A stretch of DNA of 64,000 nucleotides from Myxococcus stipitatus (lineage in GTDB: Bacteria; Myxococcota; Myxococcia; Myxococcales; Myxococcaceae), in contig NZ_CP147913.1 in NCBI RefSeq assembly GCF_037414475.1, forward strand, positions 3,782,001-3,846,000, written 5' to 3'. Position 1 is the first letter of the stretch, and every line of letters begins with the position of its first letter. The position numbers were made by a program, and so were the translations under genes. The notes below the pieces were generated by a model, which did not search any database, was not told the DNA's origin, and was given only the letters and a program-made list of their open reading frames with translations. This document shows, one piece after another, positions 26,378 through 44,388 of this stretch.

Positions 26378-26785
26378 ATGCACTGCGAGCTCTGCCTCCT
26401 GGAACACGCCACGAACGCGCGATGCCCTCACCGGCCTCGCAAGCCGCGCCCCTCTTCCCACCATCACGGCACAGCCCAGCCCCACCCCTGCCCGGCCACC
26501 ATCCGCGTCCAGGGCCTCCAGGCCCAAGGTGTTGAAATCGACCGGGGCGGACTCTTCCTCAGCTGCGAGGAGCCCTTCCCGCCCCTCTTCACCCGCCTGG
26601 AGCTCACCCTCCGCCTGGCGGGCGAGGACTTCACCTGCACCGGCGAAGTCGTCCGCCACGTCGACGCCGCACACGCCCGCACCTGGGGCAGCTCCGCGGG
26701 CATCGGCGTCCAGCTCCTCCCCGCACCTCCCCGCCTCCGCGAGCTCCTCTCCCGAGCCCGCGCCTCCCACCTCACTTCACGGTGA
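26378..26785 (+). CDS. PilZ-like domain protein with Cys-rich N-terminus
   Basis: This 135-residue protein starts at ATG 26378 (GAGG at 5 bp). Residues 1-20 hold a Cys/His cluster ('CELCLLEHATNARCPH') that could bind zinc. From about 45 to 125 the sequence follows the PilZ/TIGR02266-like pattern common in myxobacteria: 'VEIDRGGLFLSCEEPFPPLF', 'LELTLRLAGEDFTCTGEVVR' and 'GIGVQLL'. The classic c-di-GMP-binding RxxxR is not clearly present before the domain, so nucleotide binding is doubtful. Its 3' end overlaps the convergent ceramidase gene by 14 bp. Confidence 0.6.
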   Translation: MHCELCLLEHATNARCPHRPRKPRPSSHHHGTAQPHPCPATIRVQGLQAQGVEIDRGGLFLSCEEPFPPLFTRLELTLRLAGEDFTCTGEVVRHVDAAHARTWGSSAGIGVQLLPAPPRLRELLSRARASHLTSR

Positions 26786-28811
26786 AGGCCCGCGACGCCC
26801 CGTAGTACGGGCGCACCCGCCCATCCCAACCGGACTTCCACTCCCCCTCATGCAGGATGCGATACGTCCCCGGCGCCGCATCCCGGGGGATGTCCCACTC
26901 CACCGTCACGTGTGAGCACCCCAACGTGGGCACACAGTTCTCCCGCTCCCACCGGTAGCGCGTCTCCCAATCACTGTCATCCGCCACGTCCACCCACGCC
27001 CCAATGGCTCCCTTGCGCTGGACCCGCAGATACGTCCCCTCCAACCGCAAGTCATTCTTCGGATGCGCCCCCCAGAACGTCACGCTCGCCGTGTCCCCGC
27101 GCCCATAGGACGCCTTCGCATCCGTGAGCACATCCCCGAACTCCACCCAGAGCAGCTTGTCGTCGAACACCACCCCCGGCTGAAGACTCGCCTGGATGTA
27201 GCGCAGGTCCGGCGGCGTGGGCCCCGGTGACACCGGCTTGCCCTCCCGCATTGACGCCGCCATCGAATCGAAGCCCTGCTGAATCGCCGCCAGCGTCCAC
27301 GGACCGAAGTGCGTCGAAGCCCCCTCGTAGTCCTGCCGCGCATACTCCTCGCGCGTCGCCACATATCCCGCGTAGTCGTTCGACAGGCCCGCGATGATGA
27401 CGTCCGTGATTCCCTTCGGCGCGAGCTGCTCCAGCACCGTCTGCCGCAAGCGGCGCCCCGACATCGTCGTCATCTCGAACGGCACCCCCACCAGCGCGAG
27501 CGGCCCCACCGTCACCAACTGGAACGGCAATACATTGGGCGTCCACGGGTGCGGCTTCATGCTGCCCATCTCCAACACAATCGGCTTCTCCCCCTGACAC
27601 GGCGTCGTGGTGAGCGAACACGTGAACTGGCCCCACAGGTCATGCACCGCCGAGCACGACGCCCCCTCCACCCCATACCCCGGGCCATCCTCCGCGCCCG
27701 CAATCATCGACAGGCCGATGGCCGCCGGGCACGTGCGGTGCTGCTGCCCATCCGTGAACGCGGGCGCCACGTCCACCGCGTCCATCTTCACGAACGTGTG
27801 CCGGTAGTCCACGCCCCCCGTGAGCGGCGCCCCCGTCTGTCCCCACAACTGCGTGGCGAAGTCGAACTGGCGCCGGGCCGAGATCTCCGTGTCCTCGAAG
27901 TCGTCCGCCCCACCGCCGTTCGTCCCGCCCAGCACGTTGGGCGTCACATCCCCCTCGTTGGACTGGGCAAAGGCAGCCACGAACGTATCCCCCGCGTCGT
28001 GGGCCTTCTCGAACAGGGACGAAGCCAATCCCTTGTTGTCACCGCTGATGTAGTGATTGGTGTTGCCCATGGACGTGGCGTGGACCGCGAACCAGTTGAT
28101 GAGCCCCACGTCTCGCCCGTCCGTCCCCGTCATGCGCAGGAGCGTCATCCGGGTATCCACGTCCTGCGCATACCGCGCCCGCTCCGCCGCGGGGTTGAGA
28201 CGGTACGCCTCCGGTGAGCGATTCCGGCTGGCCCCGAGCAGCTCGCCCGACGCCATGCGCAGCGTCCCCTCCCCCAGCCGCGAGTGCGCCCGAGAGATGG
28301 ACGTGACGATGCCCGAGACAATCGCGTCGAAGTTCTGCGGCACGAAACCAAACGTGCTCAGGTTGTAGAACGTGTGATGTGAATAGCCCCCCGGCCCCGA
28401 ATGCGTGTGCGTGGCGCTGATGAGCACGTTCTCATCGCTGTAGACATCCCCGAAGCGCGCGCGCAGCTTCTCCACCACCTGCGTCTTCACGCCCTGGAAG
28501 ATCATCCCCAGGTCCGCGCTCACGAACGCCACGCGGCGGCCGTTGCACGGGGACGCGATGACGAAGGCGCGCGAGCGCAGCCGCTGGTGGATGCCATCCG
28601 TCTGCTGGGAGAGCTGGCCGTAGCCCATCATCCCCACCTCCGCCGCGGGCCCGGTGATGTCCCCCATTCCCGCTCCCACCAGGAAGCGCGGGTTGCCCGC
28701 ACAGCTGTCCTGCGGGCCAGCGCTCACCGGCGCGGCCGCACTCGCCCTCGGGGCGACCACCCCCACGACGAGCCCCAGCACCAGGGCGAACCGGACGAGC
28801 TGTGCACACAT
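26772..28811 (-). CDS. Neutral/alkaline ceramidase, secreted
   Basis: This 679-residue protein is read from ATG 28811 (GGAGGAAGC upstream). A signal peptide covers about residues 1-27. The protein matches the neutral ceramidase family, which cleaves the N-acyl bond of ceramide: 'GAGMGDITGPAAEVGMMGY' at the N-terminus, 'ATHTHSGPGGYSHH' (zinc His135/137) and 'INWFAVHATSMG' (His244). The nucleophile loop reads 'SNEGDVTPN', so the family's catalytic Ser in 'GDVSPN' is Thr290 here. The C-terminal beta domain ends in 'YYGASRAFTVK'. Myxobacteria contain sphingolipids and prey on other cells, so lipid turnover or predation are plausible roles. The gene is divergent from the Hint protein at 29193. Confidence 0.85.
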   Translation of the reverse strand: MCAQLVRFALVLGLVVGVVAPRASAAAPVSAGPQDSCAGNPRFLVGAGMGDITGPAAEVGMMGYGQLSQQTDGIHQRLRSRAFVIASPCNGRRVAFVSADLGMIFQGVKTQVVEKLRARFGDVYSDENVLISATHTHSGPGGYSHHTFYNLSTFGFVPQNFDAIVSGIVTSISRAHSRLGEGTLRMASGELLGASRNRSPEAYRLNPAAERARYAQDVDTRMTLLRMTGTDGRDVGLINWFAVHATSMGNTNHYISGDNKGLASSLFEKAHDAGDTFVAAFAQSNEGDVTPNVLGGTNGGGADDFEDTEISARRQFDFATQLWGQTGAPLTGGVDYRHTFVKMDAVDVAPAFTDGQQHRTCPAAIGLSMIAGAEDGPGYGVEGASCSAVHDLWGQFTCSLTTTPCQGEKPIVLEMGSMKPHPWTPNVLPFQLVTVGPLALVGVPFEMTTMSGRRLRQTVLEQLAPKGITDVIIAGLSNDYAGYVATREEYARQDYEGASTHFGPWTLAAIQQGFDSMAASMREGKPVSPGPTPPDLRYIQASLQPGVVFDDKLLWVEFGDVLTDAKASYGRGDTASVTFWGAHPKNDLRLEGTYLRVQRKGAIGAWVDVADDSDWETRYRWERENCVPTLGCSHVTVEWDIPRDAAPGTYRILHEGEWKSGWDGRVRPYYGASRAFTVK

Positions 28812-29192
28812 GCTTCCTCCACGGCGAGTCTGAGCGGCCTCTCCAACGAGCACGAGCCCCTCAATAAGGACTCTCCCGCCTCCCCGCACCCGTCCAGAGA
28901 CACCCCGTCCACCGTCCCACATTCCCCCCAGCCCCACCCTCCGCGAGGCAGCGGGAACCCACACCCGAAGTGCCTCCGGCCAGCCATCTGCCTGCCCGTC
29001 AGGGCCCCTGGCGGAAAGTCCACTTCAGCGCCACTTCTTCAGAATTGTTTTCACTCGCCGCAATTCAATGACACTCAACACTCATGGCGTGGTTTCCGAC
29101 AAAGGCCTGACTCCCTCTGTATCCTGGACGAAGGCAACCCACCCCCGCCATTCCAGACACAACACTCCGCCCCAAGTCTCGAGGAGCTGGCC
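28812..29192. other. Divergent intergenic region
   Basis: About 380 bp lie between the ceramidase and Hint-protein starts. A short A/T-rich patch (about 29038-29085) is the likeliest promoter area for the Hint gene. No gene or clear motif was found. Confidence 0.35.
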
Positions 29193-30029
29193 ATGAAGCG
29201 ACTGTCGGTTGTGCTTGTCCTTGCGTGCACGATGCTCTCCACGACGGCATCCGCTCAGCTCTCCACCCGGTGTTTCACGGACGACCAACTCACCACGCCG
29301 GTGCTGGCCCAGGGCCGCAACAACTGGGCCCACAAGTGCGGTTACATCAACCAGGCCAAGCGGGACTTCCTCAACAGCGAGGGTGAGTACCAGGTGTTCT
29401 CCGGCGGCTGCTTCTCCTTCGCCTCCACCGGCCCCACGCCGACCTGCTCCTTCTTCATCCCCGCCGACGCCAACGCGCCGTGCCTCGCGGACCTGGTGAA
29501 GCTGGGGACGTGCGTGACGGGGTGCTACACCGCGCGGGAGAAGGTGGCCTTCCAGAGCGGGTACTGGCCCATCGAGGACGCATACCTCGCCGGGGTCCGC
29601 ACCGTGACGGCGCTCGACAAGGACGCGACGCTCGTCTCCCCCTCCACGGGTGAGCAGCCCATCCGCGCCTTCGTCGCCGGCGACACGCGTGAGGATGTGT
29701 TCGCGCTGGAGACCACGGATGGCCGCCGCGTCGAGGTGACCGCCGAGCACCCCATGGTCACCGCCTCGGGAGAGATGGTGAAGGCCAAGACGCTCCAGAA
29801 GGGAGACCTGCTGCTCGGCGTCCGCGGCGAGAAGGTGGAGCTGCGAGACATCTCCGTGTTCCGCTACGAGGGGAAGACCTGGAACGTGCAGCCCACCAGC
29901 CACGAGAAGATCGAGAACGTGCTGGATGTGGAGGGGCTCCTGACGGGCTCGGTGCGCTTCCAGAACGAGTGGGCGGAGGACCACTACCGCCTGTCGCTGC
30001 GGGACGAGGCGCGCGTCGACGACCTCTGA
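29193..30029 (+). CDS. Exported protein: conserved N-domain plus Hint (hedgehog/intein) domain, paralogue 1
   Basis: This 278-residue protein starts at ATG 29193 (GAGGAG upstream) with signal peptide 'LVLACTMLSTTASA'. Residues 23-110 form a domain with six conserved Cys ('LSTRCFTDDQLTT', 'GRNNWAHKCGYI', 'EYQVFSGGCFSF', 'CSFFIP', 'APC', 'LGTC'). At 'GCYTAREKVAFQSGYWPIED' a Hint domain begins: catalytic Cys, then 'GDTREDVFALETTDGRRVEV', the block-B 'TAEHP' (T-x-x-H), 'AKTLQKGDLLLG' and a C-terminal strand region. There is no C-terminal His-Asn and no C-extein, so hedgehog-like self-cleavage rather than splicing is expected. Paralogues are at 34437 and 38889. Function unknown. Confidence 0.75.
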   Translation: MKRLSVVLVLACTMLSTTASAQLSTRCFTDDQLTTPVLAQGRNNWAHKCGYINQAKRDFLNSEGEYQVFSGGCFSFASTGPTPTCSFFIPADANAPCLADLVKLGTCVTGCYTAREKVAFQSGYWPIEDAYLAGVRTVTALDKDATLVSPSTGEQPIRAFVAGDTREDVFALETTDGRRVEVTAEHPMVTASGEMVKAKTLQKGDLLLGVRGEKVELRDISVFRYEGKTWNVQPTSHEKIENVLDVEGLLTGSVRFQNEWAEDHYRLSLRDEARVDDL

Positions 30030-30057
30030 GTGAGCCGTCTCCCGGAGCCTCCCCGCC

Positions 30058-31794
30058 ATGCGAAGCCTCCCACGTGGGTCCACGACAGCGGTGACACAGG
30101 GGCTCGCGCTGGCGTGGAGCGCCCTGACGCTCGCGATGGGGGCGTGTGGCCCGATGGAGGCGCCGCTCCTGGACGAGGACGAGGAGGGCACCCTCTCCCA
30201 CCGCTACGGGCCGCTGATGCCACAAGGTGACTTCGCGGCCACCGTGACGCGCTACGAATACGAGTTCGCGACACAGACGGGCGCGGCGCGCTCCGTGTTG
30301 ATGCTGGATGTCGCCCCCCCCGGAGGCGACTGCTTCGTGGTGAACGCCCCCGAGGGGCTCACCGACTTGCGCTGGAATGGCGCGCTGCCCGTGCGCGCGG
30401 AGTCGACGCCCGACGGCATCCGCGTCTGCGGTCCGGGCCTCTTCGCGGGACAGGTGAAGCTGGAGGCCCGGTTCATCGTGCCCCTCCAGACGTATGACTT
30501 CACCCAGGTGGGCTTCTCCCGCCGCTTCGACCGGGTGGGCAGCACCTTCAGCTATCTTTTGAGCTGGATTGGCGCCTGCGACCTGCTGGGCCCCTGCGAC
30601 GACCGGACAGACCAGCTCACGCAGTATGTCTTCACGGTCAAACACGCCTCCAACGAGCGGGTGTTATGCCCGGGCAAGAGGACCCGCCCCAATTCGACCA
30701 CCACCCGGTGTGAGCTGACGGGGCTCACCAAGGCGCCCACGTATTCGTCCTTCGCGGTGGCCTCCAATCCCGCGTGGCGCTCCAGCACGTTCACGGAGGT
30801 GCCCGGCAAGTTCAAGCTGGAGCTCCACGAGGTGCCCGGCGGCAAGCTGGCCTCGGCGCTCGACGCGTCGGAGGTCCGCGAGTACCTGAGCTGGGTCATC
30901 GGTGAGCTGGGCCCCCTGCCCTACGGCACGGAGCTGCGCGTCGCGAGCGCGCCCACGGAGTGGCTGGGCGCGGAGCACCCCGCGAACCTCATCCTCCGCG
31001 AGGACCTGCCGGACCTACGGCGCGACTACGCGAACATGACGATGCACACGCTCATGCACGAGGTCGTGCATCAGTGGGCGGGCAATCGCACCACGCTGTC
31101 GAGGCCCCTCGACTTCGTGTGGAAGGAAGCCATCGCCGAGTACCTCACGTACCGCTACGAGCTGCTGGCGCGCCCTCCCGGCGAGGCCCAGCAGACGCGC
31201 GCGCACTGGGACCGGCTGGCGCGCACCGCCTCGTACTACCCGCAGCCGCAGGACGACCCGCAGCCGGTCTTCCTCTCGTACTCGGCGGATGTCTACGGCA
31301 CCGGGCCCATGATTCTCTTCCTCCAGTTGGAGCCGCTGCTCGGCGAGGACACCGTCCTCCAGGCCATCAAGGACTTCCTGCACCAGCCTGGCGACCGGAG
31401 CGTCGCGGACCTGCGCACCGCGCTGGAGCTCGCCTCGGGTAAGGACCTGGGCCCCTACTTCAATGCCTGGGTCCACGGCAGCGGAGACCCGGACTGGCCC
31501 TTCTTCGACGTGAGCACCGAATCACACGACGGCAAGGTCACCCTCACCGCCGTCCAACGCTCCCTCTCCGGCAAGTCGTACCCCGTCTCCGTGGACGTCC
31601 TCATCGAGGGCGCCACCCGTCAGCGTGTCGTCACGCTCGACTACGGACTGGCTCCCGAGTCGGACACCTTGCGCGTGACGGTGCCCTTCCCCGAGCCCGT
31701 GAAGCACGTGACGGTGGACCCGGAGAACCGGGTGGTCAATCGCAGGTTCCTCGGGCTCGACACAGAGCCGCCTCCCGAGCGGTGGCGGTTCTAG
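30058..31794 (+). CDS. M1-like gluzincin metallopeptidase, lipoprotein
   Basis: This 578-residue protein begins 28 bp after the Hint gene. The N-terminus ends in a lipobox ('LTLAMGAC'), which implies lipid anchoring. The catalytic domain has the zinc motif 'HEVVHQW' (334-338) followed 18 residues later by 'KEAIAEY', whose Glu is the third ligand. This is the M1 aminopeptidase arrangement. The usual GAMEN exopeptidase motif is not obvious, so substrate range may differ. The tail 'VEGATRQRVVTLDYG...' is a beta-sandwich. Residues 1-220 are beta-rich as in M1 N-domains. Probably a cell-surface peptidase. Co-transcription with the Hint protein is likely. Confidence 0.75.
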   Translation: MRSLPRGSTTAVTQGLALAWSALTLAMGACGPMEAPLLDEDEEGTLSHRYGPLMPQGDFAATVTRYEYEFATQTGAARSVLMLDVAPPGGDCFVVNAPEGLTDLRWNGALPVRAESTPDGIRVCGPGLFAGQVKLEARFIVPLQTYDFTQVGFSRRFDRVGSTFSYLLSWIGACDLLGPCDDRTDQLTQYVFTVKHASNERVLCPGKRTRPNSTTTRCELTGLTKAPTYSSFAVASNPAWRSSTFTEVPGKFKLELHEVPGGKLASALDASEVREYLSWVIGELGPLPYGTELRVASAPTEWLGAEHPANLILREDLPDLRRDYANMTMHTLMHEVVHQWAGNRTTLSRPLDFVWKEAIAEYLTYRYELLARPPGEAQQTRAHWDRLARTASYYPQPQDDPQPVFLSYSADVYGTGPMILFLQLEPLLGEDTVLQAIKDFLHQPGDRSVADLRTALELASGKDLGPYFNAWVHGSGDPDWPFFDVSTESHDGKVTLTAVQRSLSGKSYPVSVDVLIEGATRQRVVTLDYGLAPESDTLRVTVPFPEPVKHVTVDPENRVVNRRFLGLDTEPPPERWRF

Positions 31795-31866
31795 GTCCTC
31801 CTGGCTTCATCGCGCCGTCGTCATCCCTCATCCGCCATCCGCCATCCAAGCCAAGGAGTCGAGCCC

Positions 31867-32667
31867 ATGAACGGACCACCCTCCAAGACGCCACGGCACG
31901 GGCGCATGTTGGGGCCGGGACTCGCGATGCTCGCCCTCGGGGTCGCGGGGCTCGCGGTGTTCGCCACGCGGACATCTCCCGAAGCACCCGCGCCTTCCCA
32001 GCCGGCCGCGTCGCCGGAGACCACGGCCCGCGCGCCCGCGATGGCGGCCATCGTCCCCGCGCCTCATCCACGGCCGGCGCCCTCCGCGCCCGCGCCTTCC
32101 GAGCCAGCGGTCTCCGAGGACGATGAGGAGGACCCGGTGGTGATGGAGCGGCGCGAGGCCGCGCGGGAGTCCGCGCGCCAGTACCGGGCTGGACGCTTCA
32201 ATGCGTTCTTCCGCAAGGCGGCCTTCATCGAGGAGTTCACGCGGCAGGGGCTCGCGCGCATCCATGGCCTGAGGGACGAGCTCGCGGATGTCTCGGCCCT
32301 GCGGCAGTTGCCCGAGGATGCGCGGTTCCTGGAGGACAAGCCCGAGCCCGTGCTCGAGCGCATGGCGATGATTGACCTGCTCTTCGAGCTGGCGCCCTCG
32401 GAGCGCGCGGCTCGCGAGGCGATGACCTCGCTGGCGCTCTCGCCCATCGACAGTGGATTGCCGGACTCGGTGAAGAAGGGGTTGGTGGGAGAGAAATACG
32501 ACTTGTTGTTTCGCCTCGCGCAGGTGGACCGTCAGCTGGCGGTCGACACCTTCGCGAAGCTGGAGAATCCCAAGCTCAAGAACCTGCTGCGAGAGGCGCT
32601 CATCGCCGGCCTGGCGGAGTCGGGGGCCAGCCCCGATGAAGTCCAGCGGATGACCGCGCACCTGTAG
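31867..32667 (+). CDS. Membrane-anchored helical protein, unknown
   Basis: This 266-residue protein has a single N-terminal membrane segment ('GPGLAMLALGVAGLAVFA'), a Pro/Ala-rich linker to about residue 85 and a helical C-terminal domain ('ARQYRAGRFNAFFRKAAFIE', 'DLLFELAPSERAAREAM', 'NLLREALIAGLAESG'). No family is recognised. It lies between an M1-like and an M4 peptidase on the same strand, so it may help their maturation or surface display, but nothing in the sequence proves this. Confidence 0.55.
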   Translation: MNGPPSKTPRHGRMLGPGLAMLALGVAGLAVFATRTSPEAPAPSQPAASPETTARAPAMAAIVPAPHPRPAPSAPAPSEPAVSEDDEEDPVVMERREAARESARQYRAGRFNAFFRKAAFIEEFTRQGLARIHGLRDELADVSALRQLPEDARFLEDKPEPVLERMAMIDLLFELAPSERAAREAMTSLALSPIDSGLPDSVKKGLVGEKYDLLFRLAQVDRQLAVDTFAKLENPKLKNLLREALIAGLAESGASPDEVQRMTAHL

Positions 32668-32864
32668 TCGCAGCCGTCATGACCCAGGAGGACCGTGTCT
32701 GCCCGAGGCGGACAGGGCCTCGTGTGTCCCGCAGTACCAGCCCAGCCGGTGTCCGACGACGACCCGACCGACTCACCGCTGTCCCCCACCCGTCGGCAAC
32801 ACAAGGCCACCCCACCTGCGCTGGAGCCATGAAGCAACACCCACCTGTAGACAAGGAGCGCGTC

Positions 32865-34391
32865 GTGACTCGGACTTGGAACAAGGGATGGATGGGAGCG
32901 TGCGTGGCCCTGTTGGGCGCCGCCTGTGGCGACGCTCCCATGGCCTCGGACAGCACGGCGCAAGCGCTGTCCTCCCCAGGAGACATCGAGGTCGTCAACA
33001 CAGACAAGGATGGCACCCCCACCTTCATCCGGGGACGGTTGGGACAGCTCACCCCGCACCTCGCCGCGCGAGGGACCCCGGACGCGCTGCGCACCGTGGC
33101 CTCCGTGTTCGGCCTGAGCGCGGAGGAGCTGACGGTTCGCTCCAGCCGCGCGGATGACCAGGGCGCGACACACGTGCGCTATGACCAGACACACCACGGC
33201 GTCCGCGTCATCGGCGGGGAGCTGGTGGTTCATGTCGACAGCACGGGTCAGGTGTACGCGGCCAACGGCTCGGCGCGAGGTGCGCGTGAGCCCTCCACCC
33301 TGATGCGCCTTCCGCTGTCCGCCGTGAAGCACGCGGCGTTGGAGGGGATGGAGCAGCTCGTGGTCCGCGGCGAGCCACGCTTCGTCTACTTCCTCGAAGC
33401 GGGGGGCACGCTGGCCTCCGCCTACGAAGTCACGCGTGTGGGCGTGCGCGACGGGGACCCCGCCCGGGACCTGGTCTACGTGGACGCGGCGTCCGGCCGG
33501 GTGCTCGACGTGCGGCCTCAAATCCACGCGGGGATGAACCGCCGGGTCCACTCTGCCAACGGGAGCTGGATGACGCCGGGCACCTTGCGGCGCACCGAGG
33601 GCGCGGGCCCCACGTGGGACGGGCACATCGACCAGAACTACGACCACATCGGCACGACCTATCAGTGCTTCGAGACCGTCTTCGGCCGCGACTCGTTCGA
33701 CGACCGGGGCGCCGCCATCACCAGCACCGTCCACTACGGCGACGGCTACGTGAACGCATACTGGGACGGGACTCAAATCGTCTTCGGGGATGGCGACGGG
33801 TTCAGCTCGGGGGAGCTCGGGTTGGATTTGGACGTGGTGTCGCACGAAATCGCCCATGCCGTGACGCAGTACGAGTCGGGGCTCGTGTATCGCAGCGAGT
33901 CGGGCGCGCTGAACGAGAGCCTGTCGGACATGGTCGCCGCCATCTGCGAGAGCTGGTCTCGCGGCGGGGCGCTGGACGCGGATGTCTGGAAGATTGGCGA
34001 GGACATCTGGACGCCTCACGTGAATGGGGACGCGCTGCGCTACATGGACAGCCCCACGCGGGATGGTTCGTCGCGGGACTACTACCCGGAGCGGTACACG
34101 GGCTCGTCCGACAACGGTGGCGTGCACTGGAACTCGGGCATCCCGAACCTGGTCTTCAAGCTGCTCGTGACGGGCGGCCCGCATCCGCGCGGCAAGACGG
34201 CCACGTGGGTGAATGGCATTGGCATGAACCGCGCGGCGCAGACCTTCTACTTCGCCGCGACGAACTACTTCACCGCGACGACCACCATGTCCCAAGCCAA
34301 GGCCTACACCATCCAGGCCGCGCAGGACCGGTACGACGCCTCGGTCGTGAGCGCGGTGCGCGACGCCTGGAACGCCGCGGGTGTGCCGTAG
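32865..34391 (+). CDS. M4 (thermolysin-like) metallopeptidase, lipoprotein precursor
   Basis: This 508-residue protein is read from GTG 32865, which has AAGGAG at good distance. Upstream ATG codons at 32679 and 32829 lack such a site. The leader ends in 'LLGAAC', a lipobox. The propeptide (FTP plus PepSY-like) covers about 45-200. The mature M4 domain holds 'VVSHEIAHAVTQYESG' (HExxH at 327-331), 'GALNESLSDM' (third zinc ligand Glu) and 'NGGVHWNSGIPN' (catalytic His). It ends 'VRDAWNAAGVP' as is usual for the family. It is expected to be an exported broad-specificity protease, fitting a predatory lifestyle. A Hint-domain protein follows 45 bp downstream. Confidence 0.88.
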   Translation: MTRTWNKGWMGACVALLGAACGDAPMASDSTAQALSSPGDIEVVNTDKDGTPTFIRGRLGQLTPHLAARGTPDALRTVASVFGLSAEELTVRSSRADDQGATHVRYDQTHHGVRVIGGELVVHVDSTGQVYAANGSARGAREPSTLMRLPLSAVKHAALEGMEQLVVRGEPRFVYFLEAGGTLASAYEVTRVGVRDGDPARDLVYVDAASGRVLDVRPQIHAGMNRRVHSANGSWMTPGTLRRTEGAGPTWDGHIDQNYDHIGTTYQCFETVFGRDSFDDRGAAITSTVHYGDGYVNAYWDGTQIVFGDGDGFSSGELGLDLDVVSHEIAHAVTQYESGLVYRSESGALNESLSDMVAAICESWSRGGALDADVWKIGEDIWTPHVNGDALRYMDSPTRDGSSRDYYPERYTGSSDNGGVHWNSGIPNLVFKLLVTGGPHPRGKTATWVNGIGMNRAAQTFYFAATNYFTATTTMSQAKAYTIQAAQDRYDASVVSAVRDAWNAAGVP

Positions 34392-34436
34392 GCGGAAAGC
34401 CATCCCTGAGTCATCCCCATACCCCAAGGAGCCATC

Positions 34437-35267
34437 ATGAAACCTGTCGTCCTCACTGTCTTCCTCTTCTGTCTTTCGAGCACCGCGCACGCGCAGCTCT
34501 CCACCCGCTGTTTCCAGGATGACCAGCTCACCACGGTGGAGCTGGCCCGGGGCCGCAACGCGTGGGCGCGCAAGTGTGGCCTCATCACCGTCGCGCGCGA
34601 GGCCTACCTGAACTCGGAGAACGAGTATCAGGTGTTCACCAATGGCTGTCATTCGTACCCGGCCGTACCCGAGGGCTCCACCTGCACCTTCTTCGTCCCC
34701 TCCGTCGAGTCGGCCCCCTGTGTGGGCAACTTGAACAAGCTGGGCACCTGCGTCGCGGGCTGCGTGACTCCGACACAGAAGGTCGCCTTCGGCGGCAGGA
34801 TGGTGCCGGTGCCGGAGGCGTATACGTCCGGGCTCACCACGGTGTCGGCGTTGAGCGCGGACTCGGAGGCGGGGCTGCTGCGCTTTGGCGAGCAGAGCAT
34901 CCGCAGCTTCGTCGTGGGTGACACGCAGGAGGACATCTTCACGTTGGAGACCCAGGAGGGCCGCCGCCTGGAGGTGACGGCGGAGCACCCCATGGTCCTC
35001 GGTGATGGGACGATGGTGAAGGCGCGCACGCTGAAGGTGGGCGACACGCTGCTGGGCGCCGACGGCGTGAAGCTGCACCTCAACCGCGTCACGGTCTTCC
35101 GCTTCAAGGGTCAGGTCTGGAACGTCCGGCCGGAGAGCCACGTGAAGCTCGAGAACGTGATGAACGCGGAGGGTTTCCTCACCGGCTCCGTGCGCTTCCA
35201 GAACGAGTGGGCCCAGGACGACTACCGCCTGTCCTTGCGCGACGACGTGGACGTGGGCGGGCTCTAG
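34437..35267 (+). CDS. Exported protein: conserved N-domain plus Hint domain, paralogue 2
   Basis: This 276-residue paralogue of the 29193 protein has ATG 34437 with AAGGAG upstream and a signal peptide ending 'STAHA'. The N-domain repeats the same Cys framework ('LSTRCFQDDQLTT', 'GRNAWARKCGLI', 'NEYQVFTNGCHSY', 'CTFFVP', 'APC', 'LGTC'). The Hint domain starts at 'GCVTPTQKVAFGG' and has 'TAEHPMVLGDGTMVKARTL', 'VGDTLLGADGVK' and the same 'RFQNEWAxDxYRLSLRD' tail as paralogue 1. Catalytic Cys and the T-x-x-H of block B are kept. A strong hairpin terminator follows. The two Hint proteins flank the M1 and M4 peptidases, so duplication of a unit is possible. Confidence 0.75.
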   Translation: MKPVVLTVFLFCLSSTAHAQLSTRCFQDDQLTTVELARGRNAWARKCGLITVAREAYLNSENEYQVFTNGCHSYPAVPEGSTCTFFVPSVESAPCVGNLNKLGTCVAGCVTPTQKVAFGGRMVPVPEAYTSGLTTVSALSADSEAGLLRFGEQSIRSFVVGDTQEDIFTLETQEGRRLEVTAEHPMVLGDGTMVKARTLKVGDTLLGADGVKLHLNRVTVFRFKGQVWNVRPESHVKLENVMNAEGFLTGSVRFQNEWAQDDYRLSLRDDVDVGGL

Positions 35268-35279
35268 GAGGCTGTTGAA

Positions 35280-35312
35280 GAGGCCCGGTTGGATGGCATG
35301 AGGCCGGGCCTC
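35280..35312 (+). terminator. Hairpin terminator after Hint paralogue 2
   Basis: A perfect 9-bp stem (GAGGCCCGG / CCGGGCCTC) with a 15-base loop lies 13 bp after the stop codon. There is no T-run longer than two. Confidence 0.55.
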
Positions 35313-35372
35313 TCGTGGACTCCAGGGGGGCTTCCCGACAGCCTGCTAGACTGCCTCCGTCCTGGAGGCTGC

Positions 35373-36503
<1,131 letters not shown>

Positions 36504-36620
36504 CGCCCTCCGTCCTCGGTCCAGCCGGCGCAGCGCCTGCCTGCCTCCATTTCGCCAGGGGTTCGTTCCAGGAACCGGCCATGCCGTGTTACTGGGACTG
36601 CCATCGAGGGGAGAGTCGCG

Positions 36621-37991
36621 ATGGCAGAGACACAGCAACCGACGATTCACGAAGCCGCGGCCTTGGGGGATTTGCAGGGCCTTGCCCAAGCCCTCGAGCG
36701 CGGAGAGAGCATCGACGCGCCGCAGGAGGGGGGCGTCACCCCGCTGATGGCCGCCGCGTTCAACGGGCAGACCGCCGCGGTCCAACGCCTCATCTCCCTC
36801 AAGGCCTCGCTGGACGCGCAGAGCGCCGCGGGCTGGACGGCGCTGCTCTACGCCGCGAAGCTCGGCCACACGGAGACCCTCCGGGAGCTGCTGAAGGCCG
36901 GGGCCAATCCCAACCTCACCGCGACGGGCGGCGAGACCGCCATCATCGAAGCGGCCTTCAATCACCACGAAGGCGCGGTCATGGCGCTGCTCCAGGCAGG
37001 CGTCGCGCCTGGCAAGCCCACGTCCATCGGCCTCACCGACCTCATCGTCTGCGCCGACGGCGGCTACCTGCCAGCGGTCAAGCTCCTGCTGGAGCGCCAC
37101 GCGCCCGTGAATGACGCCAACGTCTATGGCGAGACGGCGCTCATCCGCGCCAGCCTGCGCGGACACACCCAGGTGGTGGCCTTCCTGCTGCGGCACGGCG
37201 CGGACAGGTCCATCGCCGACAAGTCCCAGAAGACGGCCAGGGACTGGGCGCTCGAGAAGGGCTTCCCCCAGGTCGCCGCGCTGTTCGACAGCAACGACGC
37301 CACGCTGGATGAAGTGCTCACCCAGAGCGCGCCCGCCCCCTCCCCGAGCAGGAAGTCCTCGACCGGCGACGTCGACTACACGGACTTCGCCGCGTGGACG
37401 CAGGGCTACATCTACGGCTTCGCCGGGTACGCCCCGATGAAGCACTCCACCGATGCCGCCGCGTTCGTGGGCCTCATCCAGCGAATCACCCAACGCACCG
37501 TCATCACCATCGGCGCGTCGTTCCATCCCTACCAGCTCATCCGGCCCGAGGGACTCTCCGTCTGGAGCTACACCCTGCTGCGCCTCCACTCGCAGCAGAA
37601 GGCGGGGCTCACGGAGGTCGGCCACGGAAGGAGCTCGGTGCACACCGTGCCGCCCGCGGACGCGTTCCCCATGCGCCAGTGGTCGGACACGCGCCTGTTC
37701 ACGGACGTCAACCCCGTCTTCGGCCAGTACGTCCCCTTCGTCATCCCCTACCTCGTCCCCAAGGATGACCAGTCCCCCTACTGGGAGAAGCGGCTGGCCG
37801 CCGAGGTCGCCGCCCACGGCCACGCCACGCCGTACCTCGAGTCCATCAACGAGGCCATGCGCTTCCTGCTGCCCACCCCCGCCTTCGTGGTGGGCTTCGA
37901 CGCCTTCGACGAGACGAACCCCCACGGCGTCGTCCAGAACTTCGTCAACGTCGCCGAGAAGCTCCTGAACGCCACCCTCCGTCAGGGCTGA
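36621..37991 (+). CDS. Ankyrin repeat protein with unknown C-terminal domain
   Basis: This 456-residue protein has no signal peptide. Residues about 10-225 form six or seven ankyrin repeats ('GVTPLMAAAFNGQTAAVQRL', 'GWTALLYAAKLGHTETLREL', 'GETAIIEAAFNHHEGAVMAL', 'GETALIRASLRGHTQVVAFL'). A Ser/Pro linker leads to a 200-residue C-terminal domain ('YTDFAAWTQGYIYGFAGYAP', 'LLRLHSQQKAGLTEVGHG', 'FPMRQWSDTRLFTDVNPVFG') that I do not recognise. It is probably a cytoplasmic protein-binding module. It ends in a hairpin before the arsR-like gene. Confidence 0.7.
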   Translation: MAETQQPTIHEAAALGDLQGLAQALERGESIDAPQEGGVTPLMAAAFNGQTAAVQRLISLKASLDAQSAAGWTALLYAAKLGHTETLRELLKAGANPNLTATGGETAIIEAAFNHHEGAVMALLQAGVAPGKPTSIGLTDLIVCADGGYLPAVKLLLERHAPVNDANVYGETALIRASLRGHTQVVAFLLRHGADRSIADKSQKTARDWALEKGFPQVAALFDSNDATLDEVLTQSAPAPSPSRKSSTGDVDYTDFAAWTQGYIYGFAGYAPMKHSTDAAAFVGLIQRITQRTVITIGASFHPYQLIRPEGLSVWSYTLLRLHSQQKAGLTEVGHGRSSVHTVPPADAFPMRQWSDTRLFTDVNPVFGQYVPFVIPYLVPKDDQSPYWEKRLAAEVAAHGHATPYLESINEAMRFLLPTPAFVVGFDAFDETNPHGVVQNFVNVAEKLLNATLRQG

Positions 37992-38013
37992 CCCCGCCAG
38001 CACCAGGCGTCCC

Positions 38014-38045
38014 AAGGGCCGGTGGCCAGTCAGGTCGCCGGCCTT
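38014..38045 (+). terminator. Hairpin terminator after the ankyrin gene
   Basis: The inverted repeat AAGGGCCGG / CCGGCCTTT (8 of 9 paired) ends in a short T-run, 22 bp after the ankyrin stop codon. Confidence 0.5.
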
Positions 38046-38049
38046 TGCC

Positions 38050-38079
38050 TTGACCAACATATGCACCGATGTGTATATG
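38050..38079 (+). promoter_or_regulatory. Promoter with overlapping ArsR-type operator
   Basis: TTGACC (38050-38055) and TATATG (38074-38079) form a sigma-70-like pair with an 18-bp spacer. An imperfect palindrome, TATGCAC-CGAT-GTGTATA (38060-38077), overlaps the spacer and -10 box. This is the usual position for autorepression by the ArsR-like protein encoded just downstream. Confidence 0.5.
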
Positions 38080-38086
38080 CACGTTC

Positions 38087-38416
38087 ATGCAATTGGACGT
38101 CTTCCAGGTGCTCGCCGACCCGACGCGCCGCCGCATCGTCGAGGCCCTGCTGAATGGCGAGCAGCAGGTCAGCGACGTCGTCGAGAAGGCCGGAGTCCAT
38201 CAGTCCGGTGTCTCGCGGCATCTGCGCATCCTCTCGGAGTCGGGCTTCGTCTCGATGCGGCCGGAGGGGCAGAGGCGGCTCTACGCGTTGAAGTCGGAGC
38301 CGTTCCAGGAGTTGGAAGGGTGGCTCGGCCCCTACCGGCAGTTGTGGGAGGCGCGGCTGGACCGCTTCGGCGCCGCGCTGAAGAAGAAACAAGAGAAGAA
38401 AGGACCACGGACATGA
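38087..38416 (+). CDS. ArsR-family winged-helix repressor
   Basis: This 109-residue protein starts at ATG 38087 ('MQLDVFQVLADPTRRRIVEA'). The in-frame ATG at 38069 lies inside the predicted operator and is less likely. The ArsR fold is clear: 'VSDVVEKAGVHQSGVSRHL' is the recognition helix-turn-helix and 'EGQRRLYAL' the wing. It lacks the Cys metal-binding motif of metal sensors and belongs to the group that pairs with SRPBCC/AHSA1 proteins. It overlaps that gene by ATGA (38413-38416). It probably represses its own operon. The inducer is unknown. Confidence 0.85.
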   Translation: MQLDVFQVLADPTRRRIVEALLNGEQQVSDVVEKAGVHQSGVSRHLRILSESGFVSMRPEGQRRLYALKSEPFQELEGWLGPYRQLWEARLDRFGAALKKKQEKKGPRT

Positions 38417-38895
38417 GCAACGAGAACGCGAAGGTCGTCGTCGAGCGCACCTACCGGGCCGGAATCGAAGACATCTGGTCGCTCTGGACCACGAAGGAAG
38501 GCTTTGAGTCGTGGTGGGGTCCGCAGGGCTTTCGCGCGGAGGTGCAGGAAATCGACGCGCGCACCGGCGGGGCGCTCCAGTACGAGATGATCGCCGACAC
38601 CCCGGAGATGGTTGCCGCGCTGAAGCAGATGGGACGGCCGCCTTCCCATGCGACCCACTCCCGCTTCACCGAGGTCACCCCCCGCTCGCGGCTCATCCTC
38701 ACCAACCTCATCGACTTCCTGCCCGGCGTCGCGACCTACAAGAGCAACATCGTCGTGGACTTCATCCCGATGGGTGACCGCGTGCGCATGGTCGTCACGA
38801 TGGACGCGATGCACAACGCGGAGTTCACCCGCATGCAGGAGGAAGGCTTCACCAGCCAGCTCACCAAGCTGGACTCACGCTTCAACCCTCACTGA
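38413..38895 (+). CDS. SRPBCC/AHSA1-like (START-fold) protein
   Basis: This 160-residue protein is translationally coupled to the ArsR-like gene. The pattern 'VVVERTYRAGIEDIWSLWTT' followed by 'FESWWGPQGFRAEVQEIDAR' and 'GGALQYEM' is typical of the AHSA1/CalC-like branch, whose hydrophobic cavity binds small ligands. The C-terminal helix is 'FTRMQEEGFTSQLTKLDSRF'. Such ArsR-SRPBCC pairs are common and are thought to act in small-molecule response, but the ligand is not predictable. The 3' end overlaps the convergent Cys-rich gene by 7 bp. Confidence 0.85.
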   Translation: MSNENAKVVVERTYRAGIEDIWSLWTTKEGFESWWGPQGFRAEVQEIDARTGGALQYEMIADTPEMVAALKQMGRPPSHATHSRFTEVTPRSRLILTNLIDFLPGVATYKSNIVVDFIPMGDRVRMVVTMDAMHNAEFTRMQEEGFTSQLTKLDSRFNPH

Positions 38896-39623
38896 GACGT
38901 GCAACCACAGTCGACTCGGCACGTGGACACCGATTCGGCGTTGCACAGGCCGTCTCCGCAGTAGCAGTCGGACGGGCACACGGCCTCATCCTCTCCCGTG
39001 TCGCAGACACCATCGCCACACTGGGACGCTGGCACACAGTCCGGAGGACAGGTGAACGCGTCCTCCATGAGCCCGCATCGGCCATCGCCGCAGGCATCGC
39101 AGTACCCCACGGGACACGGCGCGAGCGACGACTCCCGCCGCGCGCCTCCCTGGAGATACGACACGGGGCATGAGCAGTAGAGCCGTGGCGGGGACTCCTC
39201 GTCGGTCTCACCCGCCGTCACCTGCCCGAGCCATCCGGGCCCGTCCGCCCACGAGCCCTCCAGATACGCCTGCAACGAGCCAGGCGGGGGCGGCGCGGCG
39301 CGGGCCACGCATGAGCCCAGCATGACGAGCCCGGTGATACACGGCGCGCTCGGTGAGACGGGCACGAAGAACTGACAGTTGTTCGAGGAGCACGGGTACT
39401 GGAAGCACCCGTTGGCGAAGACTTGATACTCGTTGTCGGCGTTGAGGATGGCCTCCTTCGTCGCCGAGATGTAGTGGCACTTGCGCGCCCACGCGTTGCG
39501 CCCGGTCACCTGCTGAGGCGTGAGGCTGTCATCACCTCCGCAGCGTCCACTGAGCTGGGCCCAGGCCGGACTCGCGAAGCCCACGACCCCAAGCCAGACG
39601 ACACCCCAGAGCAGCTCCTTCAT
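38889..39623 (-). CDS. Exported protein: conserved N-domain plus Cys-rich repeats, paralogue 3
   Basis: This 244-residue protein starts at ATG 39623 with AGGAGG upstream. After a signal peptide ending 'FASPAWA' the first 90 residues match the N-domain of the Hint proteins at 29193 and 34437 ('LSGRCGGDDSLTP', 'GRNAWARKCHYI', 'NEYQVFANGCFQY', 'CQFFVP', 'APC', 'LGSC'). In place of the Hint domain it has a short linker and three Cys-rich, dockerin-like or EGF-like units ('CGDGRCGLMEDAFTCPPDC', 'CGDGVCDTGEDEAVCPSDC', 'CGDGLCNAESVSTCRVDC'). The shared N-domain is therefore a mobile exported module. Function unknown. Confidence 0.7.
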   Translation of the reverse strand: MKELLWGVVWLGVVGFASPAWAQLSGRCGGDDSLTPQQVTGRNAWARKCHYISATKEAILNADNEYQVFANGCFQYPCSSNNCQFFVPVSPSAPCITGLVMLGSCVARAAPPPPGSLQAYLEGSWADGPGWLGQVTAGETDEESPPRLYCSCPVSYLQGGARRESSLAPCPVGYCDACGDGRCGLMEDAFTCPPDCVPASQCGDGVCDTGEDEAVCPSDCYCGDGLCNAESVSTCRVDCGCTSQ

Positions 39624-41157: not shown

Positions 41158-43125
41158 ATGCGCCGCCAGCGGCCGTACGTCATCGCGATGGCAGCCACCC
41201 TCGTCCTGCTCGCCCTGGGTGGAGTGTGGTGGAAAAAGAACGCGGGGACACCGTCTTCGATTTCAGACACACCACCCGATTCCCATTCACAGACATCTCG
41301 CGCCCCGCCGGCGCCTGTCGCTGCGGGCTCGACACAGGCTGAATCCCGGGGCCACCCCACGCCCGGGACACTCCACCGGCATGCGTTGAGCCTGATGACG
41401 GCAGTGTCCTTCGAACAACAGAACTCGGGGATGCGCTTCGCCCTCCAGGGGGAATGGGACGTGGGCATCGTCTCCGCGAAGGACGACGCCGTCCTGGTCC
41501 GCGTCCAGCTCAAGCCCACCACCTTCACGGTGGACGTGGAGGGACAAGGGCCGCTCGCGCCCGAGGCACGTGAAGCCATGATGGCGGCGCTGTCCCTGCC
41601 CTTCTTCGAGACACGCGACGCCCGGGGCGCGGTGTTGCTCACGCACTTCGAGCAAGGCGTGGATGAGCTGGCGCGAGGACTCTTGCGCTCGGTGGTGGCG
41701 TCCTCGCAGTTCGTGGTGGACGGCGCTCCGCCCGAGCAGTGGCGCACCGAAGAGCAGGACACCTCCGGCCAGTACGTGGCCCGGTATGAGCGCGTGGAGG
41801 CCCGCCGCTACCAGAAGCACAAGGAGGTCTACACGGCCGCGGCGACACCCGAGGGACTCCAGCCGCTGACGGGCGCTCCCCGCATGAGCGTCACGGGCGG
41901 CGCCACCTTCGAGCTGACGGAGGACGCGTGGCTCCAGTCGCTCCAGGTGCGCGAGCGGTTGACGGTGGACCCGGGGGAGGGATTGCCCCGGATAACGAAC
42001 ACCACGGAGCTGACGTTGAAGCTGCTCGAGCGCCGGCTCGAGCCGGGGCTGGTGGATGCGTTCACCGCGCGCGCCGCCTTCCTGAACACCTCCGCGCTGG
42101 CCAGCTTCCAAGGACAGGCGGCGGACCCGCTGGCGCATCACCGGCAGGTGCTGGGCTCGCGGCGGCTCGAGGACATCCTCGCGGACCTGCGCGCGCTGCC
42201 CGGCGACGAGAAGGCGCGGGATGAGGCCAGGACCCGAGCGCTGGAGCAGCTGCGGGCCCTGCTCATGCTGCGGCCCGGGGAGGCGGCGCGCATCCCTGCG
42301 CTGCTGCGCGCCAAGGACCTGTCTGCGCTGGCCGCCAGCTCCATGCTCGGCGCGCTCTCCGCCGCGAGCACTCCGGAGTCCCTGCGTGCGCTCGCCTCGG
42401 CCACGGGAGACACGGCGCTGACGGCGGACGTGCGCATGGACGCGGTCTCCGCGCTGGGCATGGCGCAGAGCCCCATCCGCGAGGGCGTGGAGACGCTGCG
42501 GCAGCTCGTGCGAAGCGAGGACCCTCGGCTGCGAGGCACCGCGACGCTGGCGCTGGGCAACGCGGCCCTGCACCTGAGCGGCACCGACGCACGCGGCTCC
42601 GAGGCGCTGGTCCAGGAGCTGGCGAATGACTATCGCGGCGCGAGGGACGCGGAGGCGAGGGCCCTGCTCCTGCGCTCGCTGGGCAATACCCGGGCACCCA
42701 CGGCGCTCGGCACCATCACGGACGCGCTGCGCTCGGACTCGGTGCGAGTGCGCGAGGCCGCCATGGTGGCGCTGCGAGGCATCCCCGGCCCGGACGCGGA
42801 TCGGCTCCTCGCGGAGCGCTTGATGAACGACCCGGTCTCCGAGGTGCGCCGAGGCGCGGTCTTCGCCTGCGGCTTCCGCCCGCTGGAGCCGTTGCTGCTT
42901 CCGATGCTGGGACAAGCCCTGCGCGAGGATGCCTCCGACGGCGTGCGCTCCGACATCATCCAACTGCTGGGCCAGCACAGAGGCACCACGCCCGGAGCGT
43001 TGGCGCTCTTGCGGTGGGCGAGCCAGAACGAGCGCCATCCTGAAATCCGTCGCATGGCCATCACCTACGTGGAAGCCCCCACCACGCCCGCGCCCTCACC
43101 GTCGACTCCTCGACCCATCCGCTGA
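41158..43125 (+). CDS. HEAT-repeat protein with N-terminal anchor
   Basis: This 655-residue protein has a signal anchor at 8-23 ('VIAMAATLVLLALGGVWW'), a Pro/Ser/Thr-rich linker, a beta-rich domain (about 75-290) and a long helical solenoid of HEAT repeats (about 310-640), for example 'DVRMDAVSALGMAQSPIREG', 'DPRLRGTATLALGNAAL', 'SVRVREAAMVALRGIPG' and 'VSEVRRGAVFACGF'. The combination of a beta sheet domain followed by a helical solenoid recalls large lipid-transfer (vitellogenin N) proteins, but this is a weak analogy. It is followed by a secreted protein of unknown function on the same strand. Similar pairs are frequent in myxobacteria. Confidence 0.65.
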   Translation: MRRQRPYVIAMAATLVLLALGGVWWKKNAGTPSSISDTPPDSHSQTSRAPPAPVAAGSTQAESRGHPTPGTLHRHALSLMTAVSFEQQNSGMRFALQGEWDVGIVSAKDDAVLVRVQLKPTTFTVDVEGQGPLAPEAREAMMAALSLPFFETRDARGAVLLTHFEQGVDELARGLLRSVVASSQFVVDGAPPEQWRTEEQDTSGQYVARYERVEARRYQKHKEVYTAAATPEGLQPLTGAPRMSVTGGATFELTEDAWLQSLQVRERLTVDPGEGLPRITNTTELTLKLLERRLEPGLVDAFTARAAFLNTSALASFQGQAADPLAHHRQVLGSRRLEDILADLRALPGDEKARDEARTRALEQLRALLMLRPGEAARIPALLRAKDLSALAASSMLGALSAASTPESLRALASATGDTALTADVRMDAVSALGMAQSPIREGVETLRQLVRSEDPRLRGTATLALGNAALHLSGTDARGSEALVQELANDYRGARDAEARALLLRSLGNTRAPTALGTITDALRSDSVRVREAAMVALRGIPGPDADRLLAERLMNDPVSEVRRGAVFACGFRPLEPLLLPMLGQALREDASDGVRSDIIQLLGQHRGTTPGALALLRWASQNERHPEIRRMAITYVEAPTTPAPSPSTPRPIR

Positions 43126-43233
43126 GGCCCCCGCGAAGGGAGCGTGCAACGCCAGACACCGCGCGCACCGCTCCAGCGCGAGACGCCTGGACGCTCCCGT
43201 ATAGACGGGCCTTCTCATCACCGGAGGTCCCTC

Positions 43234-44388
43234 ATGAACAGGGCGGTATCGCGCGCTGTCGCGCTGATGCTGGTCGTGGTTCCCGGATTCGTCGCGGCGC
43301 AGAGCTACGTCGACTCTCAACCCTACGTCGTCGACCCCGCGAAGTATCCCTTCGCCATCCATGCCCCGGGAACGGTGCTGGACAACGCGGTGCCCTGGGA
43401 GACACGCGTCGCTCCCTTCGTCCCCGGCGCCAGCTACTCACCCACCGAGGAGCACGCCGTCCTCCAGGACGAGACGAACCGCACGGGAGGACAACTCCGG
43501 TACGACCTGGCGGACCACACCCACAACCTGGACATCGAGCAGGCCACGATTCCAGAGGCCTTCACGCACCAGGTCCCTCCGCCGGTGGAAATCAGGCCGT
43601 GGACCAATCCGGTGCAGACGTTCAACAAGTCATACGTGCGCACGGAGCGGTTCGGCAACGGGCTGTTCGGCGCGGGATATCATCTCAACACCCTGCTCAC
43701 CGCCGAGACGGCGACGGCCACCTCGGACAAGAAGGTGGTGGCGGTGGCCGAGGGCAAGGTGTTCGCCACGGTGTTCTCGTCCGAGCATGACCTGGTGCGC
43801 GGGCGCGCCCAAATCGTCGGACAGAACGGAGGCGACAACAGCGGCCTGGCCGCGCTCTACGTGCTGGGACAGGAGGTGTGGTCCACCAGCCTGCAAGCGA
43901 CGTATGCGCCGCCACCGGTCAACTGGAGCCGGACGTTCTTCTCCGCGTCGAAGACCTTCATGGTGGGCCCGGTGCCCGTCACGGTGAAGGCCTCGCTGTC
44001 CGGCGGCGTGAAGCTGGCGGTGAGCGGCGAGGTGAATCCCCTGGTGGCCCGGCTCGCCGCGACGCCCGGCGGCTGGTCCCACGTCACCGCGTCCGCCGCC
44101 GTGGACGTCGTCATCGTGGGCTTCGGCGTGGAGGGCAGCCTGGCCCTCATCAACGCCACCCTGCCCGCCTCCGGCGAAGTGCTCTGGCCCGTGTGCAACC
44201 TCGACTGGAAGCTCAAGACGGAGCTGGACCTGAACACCCTCTCCGGAACCCTGAAGGCCTTCGCGAGGGTGCGGGTCCTCTTCTTCAAGAAGACCTGGTG
44301 GGTGACCATCGCCCAGTGGGCTGGCATCAGCCACCAGCTGACCTTGTTCGGCGTGGAGGGCTCACAGCCGCTCGGCGTCTGTAGCTAA
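43234..44388 (+). CDS. Secreted beta-rich protein of unknown function
   Basis: This 384-residue protein starts at ATG 43234 (GGAGG upstream) with signal peptide 'AVALMLVVVPGFVAA'. The mature part is rich in beta strands and Thr/Val, with a few hydrophobic strand pairs ('GGVKLAVSGEVNPLVARLAA', 'VDVVIVGFGVEGSLALINA') and two late Cys. No family is recognised. It follows the HEAT protein by 108 bp and may be its partner. Confidence 0.5.
   Translation: MNRAVSRAVALMLVVVPGFVAAQSYVDSQPYVVDPAKYPFAIHAPGTVLDNAVPWETRVAPFVPGASYSPTEEHAVLQDETNRTGGQLRYDLADHTHNLDIEQATIPEAFTHQVPPPVEIRPWTNPVQTFNKSYVRTERFGNGLFGAGYHLNTLLTAETATATSDKKVVAVAEGKVFATVFSSEHDLVRGRAQIVGQNGGDNSGLAALYVLGQEVWSTSLQATYAPPPVNWSRTFFSASKTFMVGPVPVTVKASLSGGVKLAVSGEVNPLVARLAATPGGWSHVTASAAVDVVIVGFGVEGSLALINATLPASGEVLWPVCNLDWKLKTELDLNTLSGTLKAFARVRVLFFKKTWWVTIAQWAGISHQLTLFGVEGSQPLGVCS

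What the first reader, a model, noticed from the sequence alone, without database searches (positions are those of the whole stretch)
29193..39623. Undescribed exported Cys domain combined with Hint domains in two paralogues and Cys-rich repeats in a third
Three proteins within 10.5 kb share a ~90-residue N-domain with six conserved Cys (GRNxWAxKC, EYQVFxxGC, xFFxP, APC, LGxC). Two continue into a Hint domain with the catalytic Cys and T-x-x-H, without an intein C-terminus. This is the layout of hedgehog-type autoprocessed secreted proteins: an exported ligand domain plus a self-cleaving Hint. The third swaps Hint for dockerin/EGF-like units.
Basis: partly seen in the sequence, partly recalled or inferred. 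Interest (0 to 1): 0.78.

Follow-up and report, generated by a model that had tools for sequence, protein, structure and literature searches.

The report
Self-cleaving exported proteins of predatory bacteria
Two exported proteins of a Myxococcus-like bacterium end in a domain that probably cuts itself off, as in a protein already studied in the predator Bdellovibrio; what looks new is a membrane-anchored partner gene that usually travels with them.

Summary
Two paralogues (29193-30029, 34437-35267) join a six-Cys exported domain to a C-terminal Hint domain; a third (38889-39623, minus) has the six-Cys domain without Hint. The model aligns residue 109 with the catalytic Cys of fly Hedgehog. That Cys is kept in 73 of 76 Hint-bearing relatives examined, the block-B His in 76 of 76. 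No His-Asn end, sterol-recognition region or downstream toxin follows.

'Undescribed' fails. Published bd2400 primers match (one and no mismatch) inside the Hint of a homologous 913-aa Bdellovibrio lipoprotein. As I recall, Bd2400 is the protein in which C-type bacterial intein-like (BIL) domains were characterised (Dori-Bachash 2009; only its citation and one sentence on PPS-1 seen). The window proteins are best read as myxobacterial members of that family.

Probably new: a predicted membrane-anchored helical protein ('HEL', 31867-32667). In 195 Myxococcota genomes, 42 have Hint and HEL, 2 Hint only, 1 HEL only (weak). In the Bdellovibrio order a whole-genome search found HEL in 23 of 42 Hint genomes; reading 21 loci closely found it next door in 20. 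Its role is unknown; I infer a dedicated partner. New member of a known kind with one unexplained, testable partner.

The parts
29193..30029 (+). HintA (P0001): signal peptide, six-Cys PPS-1-like domain (29256-29522), C-type-BIL-like Hint (29523-30026, first residue the catalytic Cys)
30058..31794 (+). M1-type zinc peptidase with HExxH-18-E, encoded between HintA and HEL
   Evidence: Pfam Peptidase_M1 9.5e-9; motif; order kept in L038-L042, 5 of 5
31867..32667 (+). HEL (P0007): predicted N-terminal membrane helix, poorly ordered linker, helical domain; usual partner of the Hint proteins
32679..34391 (+). M4 (thermolysin) peptidase with propeptide motif, HEIAH; true start possibly 32829 or later
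   Evidence: Pfam Peptidase_M4_C 2.6e-46; order kept in L038-L042, 5 of 5
34437..35267 (+). HintB (P0002): signal peptide, six-Cys PPS-1-like domain (34494-34760), C-type-BIL-like Hint (34761-35264, first residue the catalytic Cys)
38889..39623 (-). P0003: signal peptide, PPS-1-like domain (about 39303-39557) without Hint, then three CGDGxC units (about 38901-39116)
41158..43125 (+). HEAT-repeat protein with a Vitellogenin_N match; associated gene, less constant than HEL
   Evidence: Pfam HEAT_2 4.4e-21, Vitellogenin_N 4e-9
43144..44388 (+). Protein of unknown family beside the HEAT protein; the two are also neighbours in L038-L040, L046 and L054; in L048 it lies beside a Hint gene without a HEAT hit between

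Best explanation
HintA and HintB are myxobacterial members of the C-type bacterial intein-like (BIL) family: an exported PPS-1 domain, closed by disulphides, is followed at once by a Hint domain. After export the Hint most likely makes an N-to-S acyl shift at Gly-Cys111 (HintA) or Gly-Cys109 (HintB), and the thioester is broken, by water or another nucleophile, so that the N-terminal part (and, in relatives, a larger surface lipoprotein) separates from the Hint. HEL, anchored in the inner membrane with a helical periplasmic domain, most likely binds the precursor or the Hint and times or supports folding, export or cleavage. Shown here: homology, modelled fold, conserved catalytic residues, gene pairing with HEL. 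Inferred: export, disulphides, cleavage in these two proteins, the acceptor, HEL's topology and role.
For: Fold: model pLDDT 80.9; the 50 Foldseek rows shown are inteins, BIL and Hedgehog Hint; alignment to fly Hog 1at0 begins at model 109 = chain 258, Z 16.8, 132 residues. Residues: of 79 distinct sequences 76 bear Hint; Cys109 73/76, Thr181 74/76, His184 76/76; the residue before the Cys is G, S or A in all 73 that have it (worked out by hand). Selection: dN/dS 0.157-0.273 for the five closest orthologue pairs, 0.258-0.735 for three more distant. Family: the myxobacterial profile A1 scores 159 bits on the Hint of the Bdellovibrio protein and 11 bits on its N-domain; the N-domain profile scores E 2.2e-11 on the plasmid homologue; bd2400 primers lie in that Hint with 1 and 0 mismatches; PPS-1 is reported in C-type BILs. 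Partner: in 195 Myxococcota genomes 42 have both, 2 Hint only, 1 HEL only, 150 neither; 55 of 56 HEL rows lie within 3 kb of a full-length Hint. HEL follows directly in 20 of 21 Bdellovibrio-order loci read, and a model without Bdellovibrionota rows ranks those 20 ORFs first, E 3e-17 to 0.009, next hit 0.56.
Against: No cleavage was measured here, and the paper that, as I recall, reports it for Bd2400 is not held. Three P. luteoviolacea paralogues lost the Cys but keep Thr and His, and P0003 has no Hint, so the PPS-1 domain also exists without cleavage. HEL is not universal: 2 of 44 Myxococcota genomes with full-length Hint have no HEL hit; 5 of 27 named loci have none (L052, L055, L057, L058, L064); in the Bdellovibrio order the whole-genome HEL search hit only 23 of 140 genomes against 42 with Hint, and 6 of its 26 rows are not near a Hint. 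HEL has no convincing fold match, so its role is a guess. Pfam scores for HintA and HintB stay below the curated cut-offs.
Confidence: 0.77

Rival explanations
1. Hedgehog-like: the Hint transfers the N-domain to a lipid or other small alcohol, giving a membrane-tethered ligand.
For: Same fold and Cys/Thr/His; fly Hog among the PDB matches; Asp162, kept in 61 of 79 rows, lies near where Hog has an active-site Asp, by my own hand alignment only; a ceramidase gene lies nearby.
Against: About 20 residues follow the Hint, against a sterol-recognition region of V366-S462 in human SHH; profile comparison with Hog weak; 12 of 20 long Bdellovibrio-order relatives show an N-terminal lipobox by a simple pattern, so they probably carry a lipid already.
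Confidence: 0.12
2. The Hint no longer cleaves; it is a structural C-terminal cap or binding domain.
For: Three Cys-less copies persist in one genome.
Against: Cys, Thr and His kept in nearly all members examined, under purifying selection among close orthologues; N-terminal autocleavage is reported, by my recollection only, for Bd2400.
Confidence: 0.12
3. Pretoxin HINT of a polymorphic toxin that releases a C-terminal toxin.
For: PT-HINT is the best Pfam family for HintA, 3.6e-5, below its cut-off.
Against: Only about 20 residues follow the Hint; in polymorphic toxins HINT sits just before the toxin domain (passage); no PADLOC match for 7 window proteins.
Confidence: 0.02

Closest known systems
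C-type BIL with PPS-1 domain, Bdellovibrio bacteriovorus Bd2400 (Dori-Bachash et al. 2009, Funct Integr Genomics 9:153; citation seen, abstract recalled)
   Same: PPS-1-like Cys domain directly before a C-terminal Hint; Cys and TxxH; predatory bacteria
   Different: The Bd2400 locus encodes 913 aa with a lipobox, PKD and thrombospondin-1 domains; the window proteins are 278 and 276 aa without such cargo, in a gene run with M1 and M4 peptidases
Hedgehog (Hedge plus Hog)
   Same: Exported N-part plus Hint with the same fold; first aligned residue is the catalytic Cys
   Different: No sterol-recognition region; no clear sequence-level tie; the N-parts were not compared
Unnamed bacterial Hint group of Burglin 2008 (MXAN_6253, STIAU_1829, plu1731; PMC2362128, passages seen)
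   Same: Bacterial proteins with C-terminal Hint, some with signal peptides, two conserved upstream Cys; includes myxobacteria
   Different: Whether it is this family or the longer type (L005-L008) could not be settled: its alignments are in supplements that I could not open

Membership tests
C-type BIL with PPS-1 | Hint fold beginning with Cys, block-B T-x-x-H | tested here: met
C-type BIL with PPS-1 | Homology of the Hint to that of Bd2400 | tested here: met
   A1 profile, 159 bits over the Hint; locus identified by bd2400 primers; that genome, G504, has one match to the A2 profile
C-type BIL with PPS-1 | The domain directly upstream is shared with the Bd2400 locus | tested here: met
   First Cys segment of the N-domain aligned, 11 bits alone; N-domain profile on the similar plasmid homologue 2.2e-11
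C-type BIL with PPS-1 | That upstream domain is PPS-1 as published | tested here: inconclusive
   One sentence says PPS-1 was discovered in C-type BILs; the 2009 alignment was not seen
C-type BIL with PPS-1 | N-terminal autocatalytic cleavage | not testable with these tools
   Needs protein; reported for Bd2400 from recollection of the abstract only
Hedgehog Hog domain | Sterol-recognition region after the Hint | tested here: not met
   About 20 residues after the Hint in P0002 against V366-S462 in human SHH
Intein / A-type BIL | C-terminal His-Asn (and a following nucleophile in inteins) | tested here: not met
   P0001 and P0002 continue as GSVRFQNEWA... and have no His-Asn end
B-type BIL | B-type sequence motifs | not tested
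   no B-type reference alignment was compared
Polymorphic toxin PT-HINT | Toxin domain directly after HINT | tested here: not met
Lipase-specific foldase (Lif), considered for HEL | Lif fold or sequence family | tested here: inconclusive
   No lipase-chaperone family among the Pfam matches of 22 HEL proteins; no Lif among the fold rows shown

The most novel reading that the evidence does not exclude
PPS-1, C-type BIL and HEL together form a regulated self-processing surface-display system: cargo (none, PKD/TSP1 lipoprotein, or others) is held by inner-membrane HEL, and on a cue the BIL thioester passes the cargo's C-terminus to a specific envelope acceptor rather than to water, a sortase-like reaction done in cis.
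Probability: 0.13. Interest if true: 0.8.

Novelty: new member of a known kind. Interest (0 to 1): 0.45.

Why it matters
[quoted passage not shown] It also supplies a frequent partner, HEL, which I did not see mentioned in the papers I opened (none of my paper searches could be aimed at HEL, which has no name). What regulates or accepts the C-type BIL cleavage becomes testable by a single gene deletion.

Tried and rejected
Hedgehog and toxin readings were tested and set aside (see rivals). The idea that the HEAT protein is the core partner was weakened: of the 53 rows with 344 bits or more, 32 lie within 8 kb of a Hint row copied (not all rows of that call) and 21 do not; some contigs are short. 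A Lif-like foldase reading of HEL found no support. A Hint-HEL fusion in L055 (Oligoflexia) is only weakly hinted, E 0.16 among all segments. The tail shared by proteins beside the Hint outside myxobacteria is not demonstrably related to PPS-1; the likeness of three such bodies to the PDB chain Aeg-L is marginal, E 0.021. No phage record matched P0002. PADLOC gave nothing for 7 window proteins. Only 2 of 295 genomes sampled from the P. luteoviolacea family group had full-length Hint hits; HEL was not searched in that set, apart from the genomes.

Full report
What is there. The three ORFs exist as described. HintA and HintB are 57% identical over their whole length; the third protein shares only the exported Cys domain, 52 of 95 columns. 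Each Hint protein has six Cys in the N-domain, then the Hint Cys; the only other Cys is in the signal peptide. The genes HintA, M1 peptidase, HEL, M4 peptidase and HintB run in one direction, and this order is kept in all 5 loci of the Myxococcus/Pyxidicoccus HintB type fetched (L038-L042 of the 27 loci). The window's genome is a single 10.3-Mb contig without a name; the closest named HintB relatives are Myxococcus, 86%, so I take it for a Myxococcus-like species.

Fold and active site. A 38-row alignment gave a model of HintB with mean pLDDT 80.9 and pTM 0.63; the N-terminal 20 residues and the C-terminal end (262-266 below 50) are poor. Foldseek and VIA-align return inteins, a Tetrahymena BIL, the Clostridium BIL 2lwy and the Hedgehog Hint. 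The alignment to 1at0 starts at model residue 109 and chain residue 258. The rest of the model was barely tested, so I claim nothing on the fold of the N-domain. Pfam finds PT-HINT and Intein_splicing below their cut-offs in HintA and HintB, and the profile finds intein and BIL chains in the PDB by sequence.

Conservation. From the loci held, 99 hits became 79 distinct sequences of 240 residues or more; three of them (the window's third protein and two relatives) have no Hint. Of the 76 others, Cys109 is kept in 73, Thr181 in 74, His184 in 76. The three without Cys109 are neighbouring paralogues in Pseudoalteromonas luteoviolacea. Cys105, four residues before, is kept in 78 of 79, also where the Hint Cys is gone, so it belongs to the N-domain (its disulphide is inference). 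Four N-domain Cys are general, two are not (25, 47, 95, 105 against 71, 83). dN/dS over 16 domain comparisons ran from 0.157 to 0.735, lowest for the closest orthologues.

Identity with a known family. In the Bdellovibrio order 42 of 140 genomes match the Hint profile, 37 of them over both N-domain and Hint (counted by hand). I fetched 20 of the 48 places (chosen by me) and one plasmid locus: in 20 of these 21 the module is the C-terminal part of a frame of 833-1045 residues, starts taken mechanically; 12 of the 20 show a lipobox by a simple pattern. The one at L066 carries two PKD stretches and a thrombospondin-1 match. A 2024 paper (PMC11271337, passages seen) prints qPCR primers for bd2400; they match L066 at 2552-2572 with one mismatch and at 2451-2471 with none, inside the Hint; the first encodes ATPEQQI, right after the Hint Cys. 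The contig length, 3,782,950, is that of strain HD100 as I recall it; that genome has one match to the profile. Dori-Bachash et al. [quoted passage not shown] bacteriovorus; I saw it only as a citation, plus one sentence in PMC9185962 (passages) that PPS-1 was discovered in C-type BILs. From memory, its abstract names Bd2400, reports N-terminal autocleavage in vitro and puts PPS-1 directly upstream of C-type BILs. [quoted passage not shown] A 2008 survey (PMC2362128, passages) also noted bacterial Hint proteins, some with signal peptides, in myxobacteria; which group it saw is open.

The partner. HEL has one N-terminal helix that looks like a membrane anchor, a poorly ordered linker and a helical domain (topology inferred). 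With a HEL profile, 43 of 195 genomes of the phylum have a hit, one of them weak. Against the 111 Hint rows above 200 bits, 42 genomes have both, 2 Hint only, 1 HEL only (the weak one), 150 neither; 55 of 56 HEL rows lie within 3 kb of such a Hint, 28 of 56 within 200 bases. Related genomes are counted apart, so the printed Fisher value is not a fair probability. HEL lies in 22 of 27 named-collection loci. In the Bdellovibrio order the same profile is weaker: 23 of 140 genomes hit, all 23 among the 42 with Hint, but 19 Hint genomes without a hit; 20 of 26 HEL rows lie within 3 kb of a Hint and six do not, among them the only row of G504. Reading 21 loci closely, HEL is the next gene in 20, overlapping by 4 bases in 15, G504 included; a model without Bdellovibrionota rows ranks those 20 ORFs first, E 3e-17 to 0.009, next 0.56. 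No Pfam family covers it, and its fold matches are at the level of unrelated helical proteins. My ten paper searches were about Hint, BIL and Bdellovibrio; I saw no mention of such a partner in listings or passages, but none could be aimed at it and the 2009 paper is not held.

Mechanism. Most likely the Hint makes the thioester at its first Cys after export and releases the N-terminal part; the cargo in front varies from nothing (window) to a PKD lipoprotein (Bdellovibrio). HEL is the most constant companion that I found; I infer that it binds the precursor and controls folding, export or timing. The nucleophile that ends the reaction is unknown.

Verdict. The sequence observation is right, the mechanistic guess is reasonable, the claim of novelty is not: these are new members of a known kind. 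What deserves attention is HEL, the stand-alone PPS-1 proteins such as P0003, and the Cys-less copies.

Noticed in passing
L044:9654-10169, L051:9639-10142 and genes beside the Hint gene in L044, L045, L051, L053, L055, L056, L063, L064: Outside myxobacteria a gene beside the Hint gene encodes a protein ending in a shared tail of about 50 residues with two Cys; a profile from gammaproteobacteria finds it in L055 (2e-9), L064 (5.7e-7), L063 (2.6e-5) and weakly in L045 (0.0018), best reversed-sequence hit 8.3.
   Followed up: partly
L044:11255-14203: Three tandem paralogues in Pseudoalteromonas luteoviolacea have lost the Hint Cys but keep T-x-x-H.
   Followed up: partly
window 41158-43125 and L004:71-943: HEAT-repeat protein matching Pfam Vitellogenin_N above its cut-off, often near Hint genes: 32 of 53 strong hits within 8 kb.
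   Followed up: partly
L005-L008 (same genome): A second Hint type of about 620-655 residues as read, with a Hint near the C-terminus; L005 is related to this Hint by profile, 97% probability, and by eye lacks a His-Asn end; hits in long frames also occur in the Pseudoalteromonas group.
   Followed up: partly
L065 (AP029178.1, Bdellovibrio sp. HAGR004 plasmid pBdHAGR2): A 48-kb plasmid carries the PPS-1/Hint lipoprotein with HEL directly downstream.
   Followed up: yes
window 26772-28964 (-): Neutral ceramidase gene beside HintA, also present in L038-L040.
   Followed up: no
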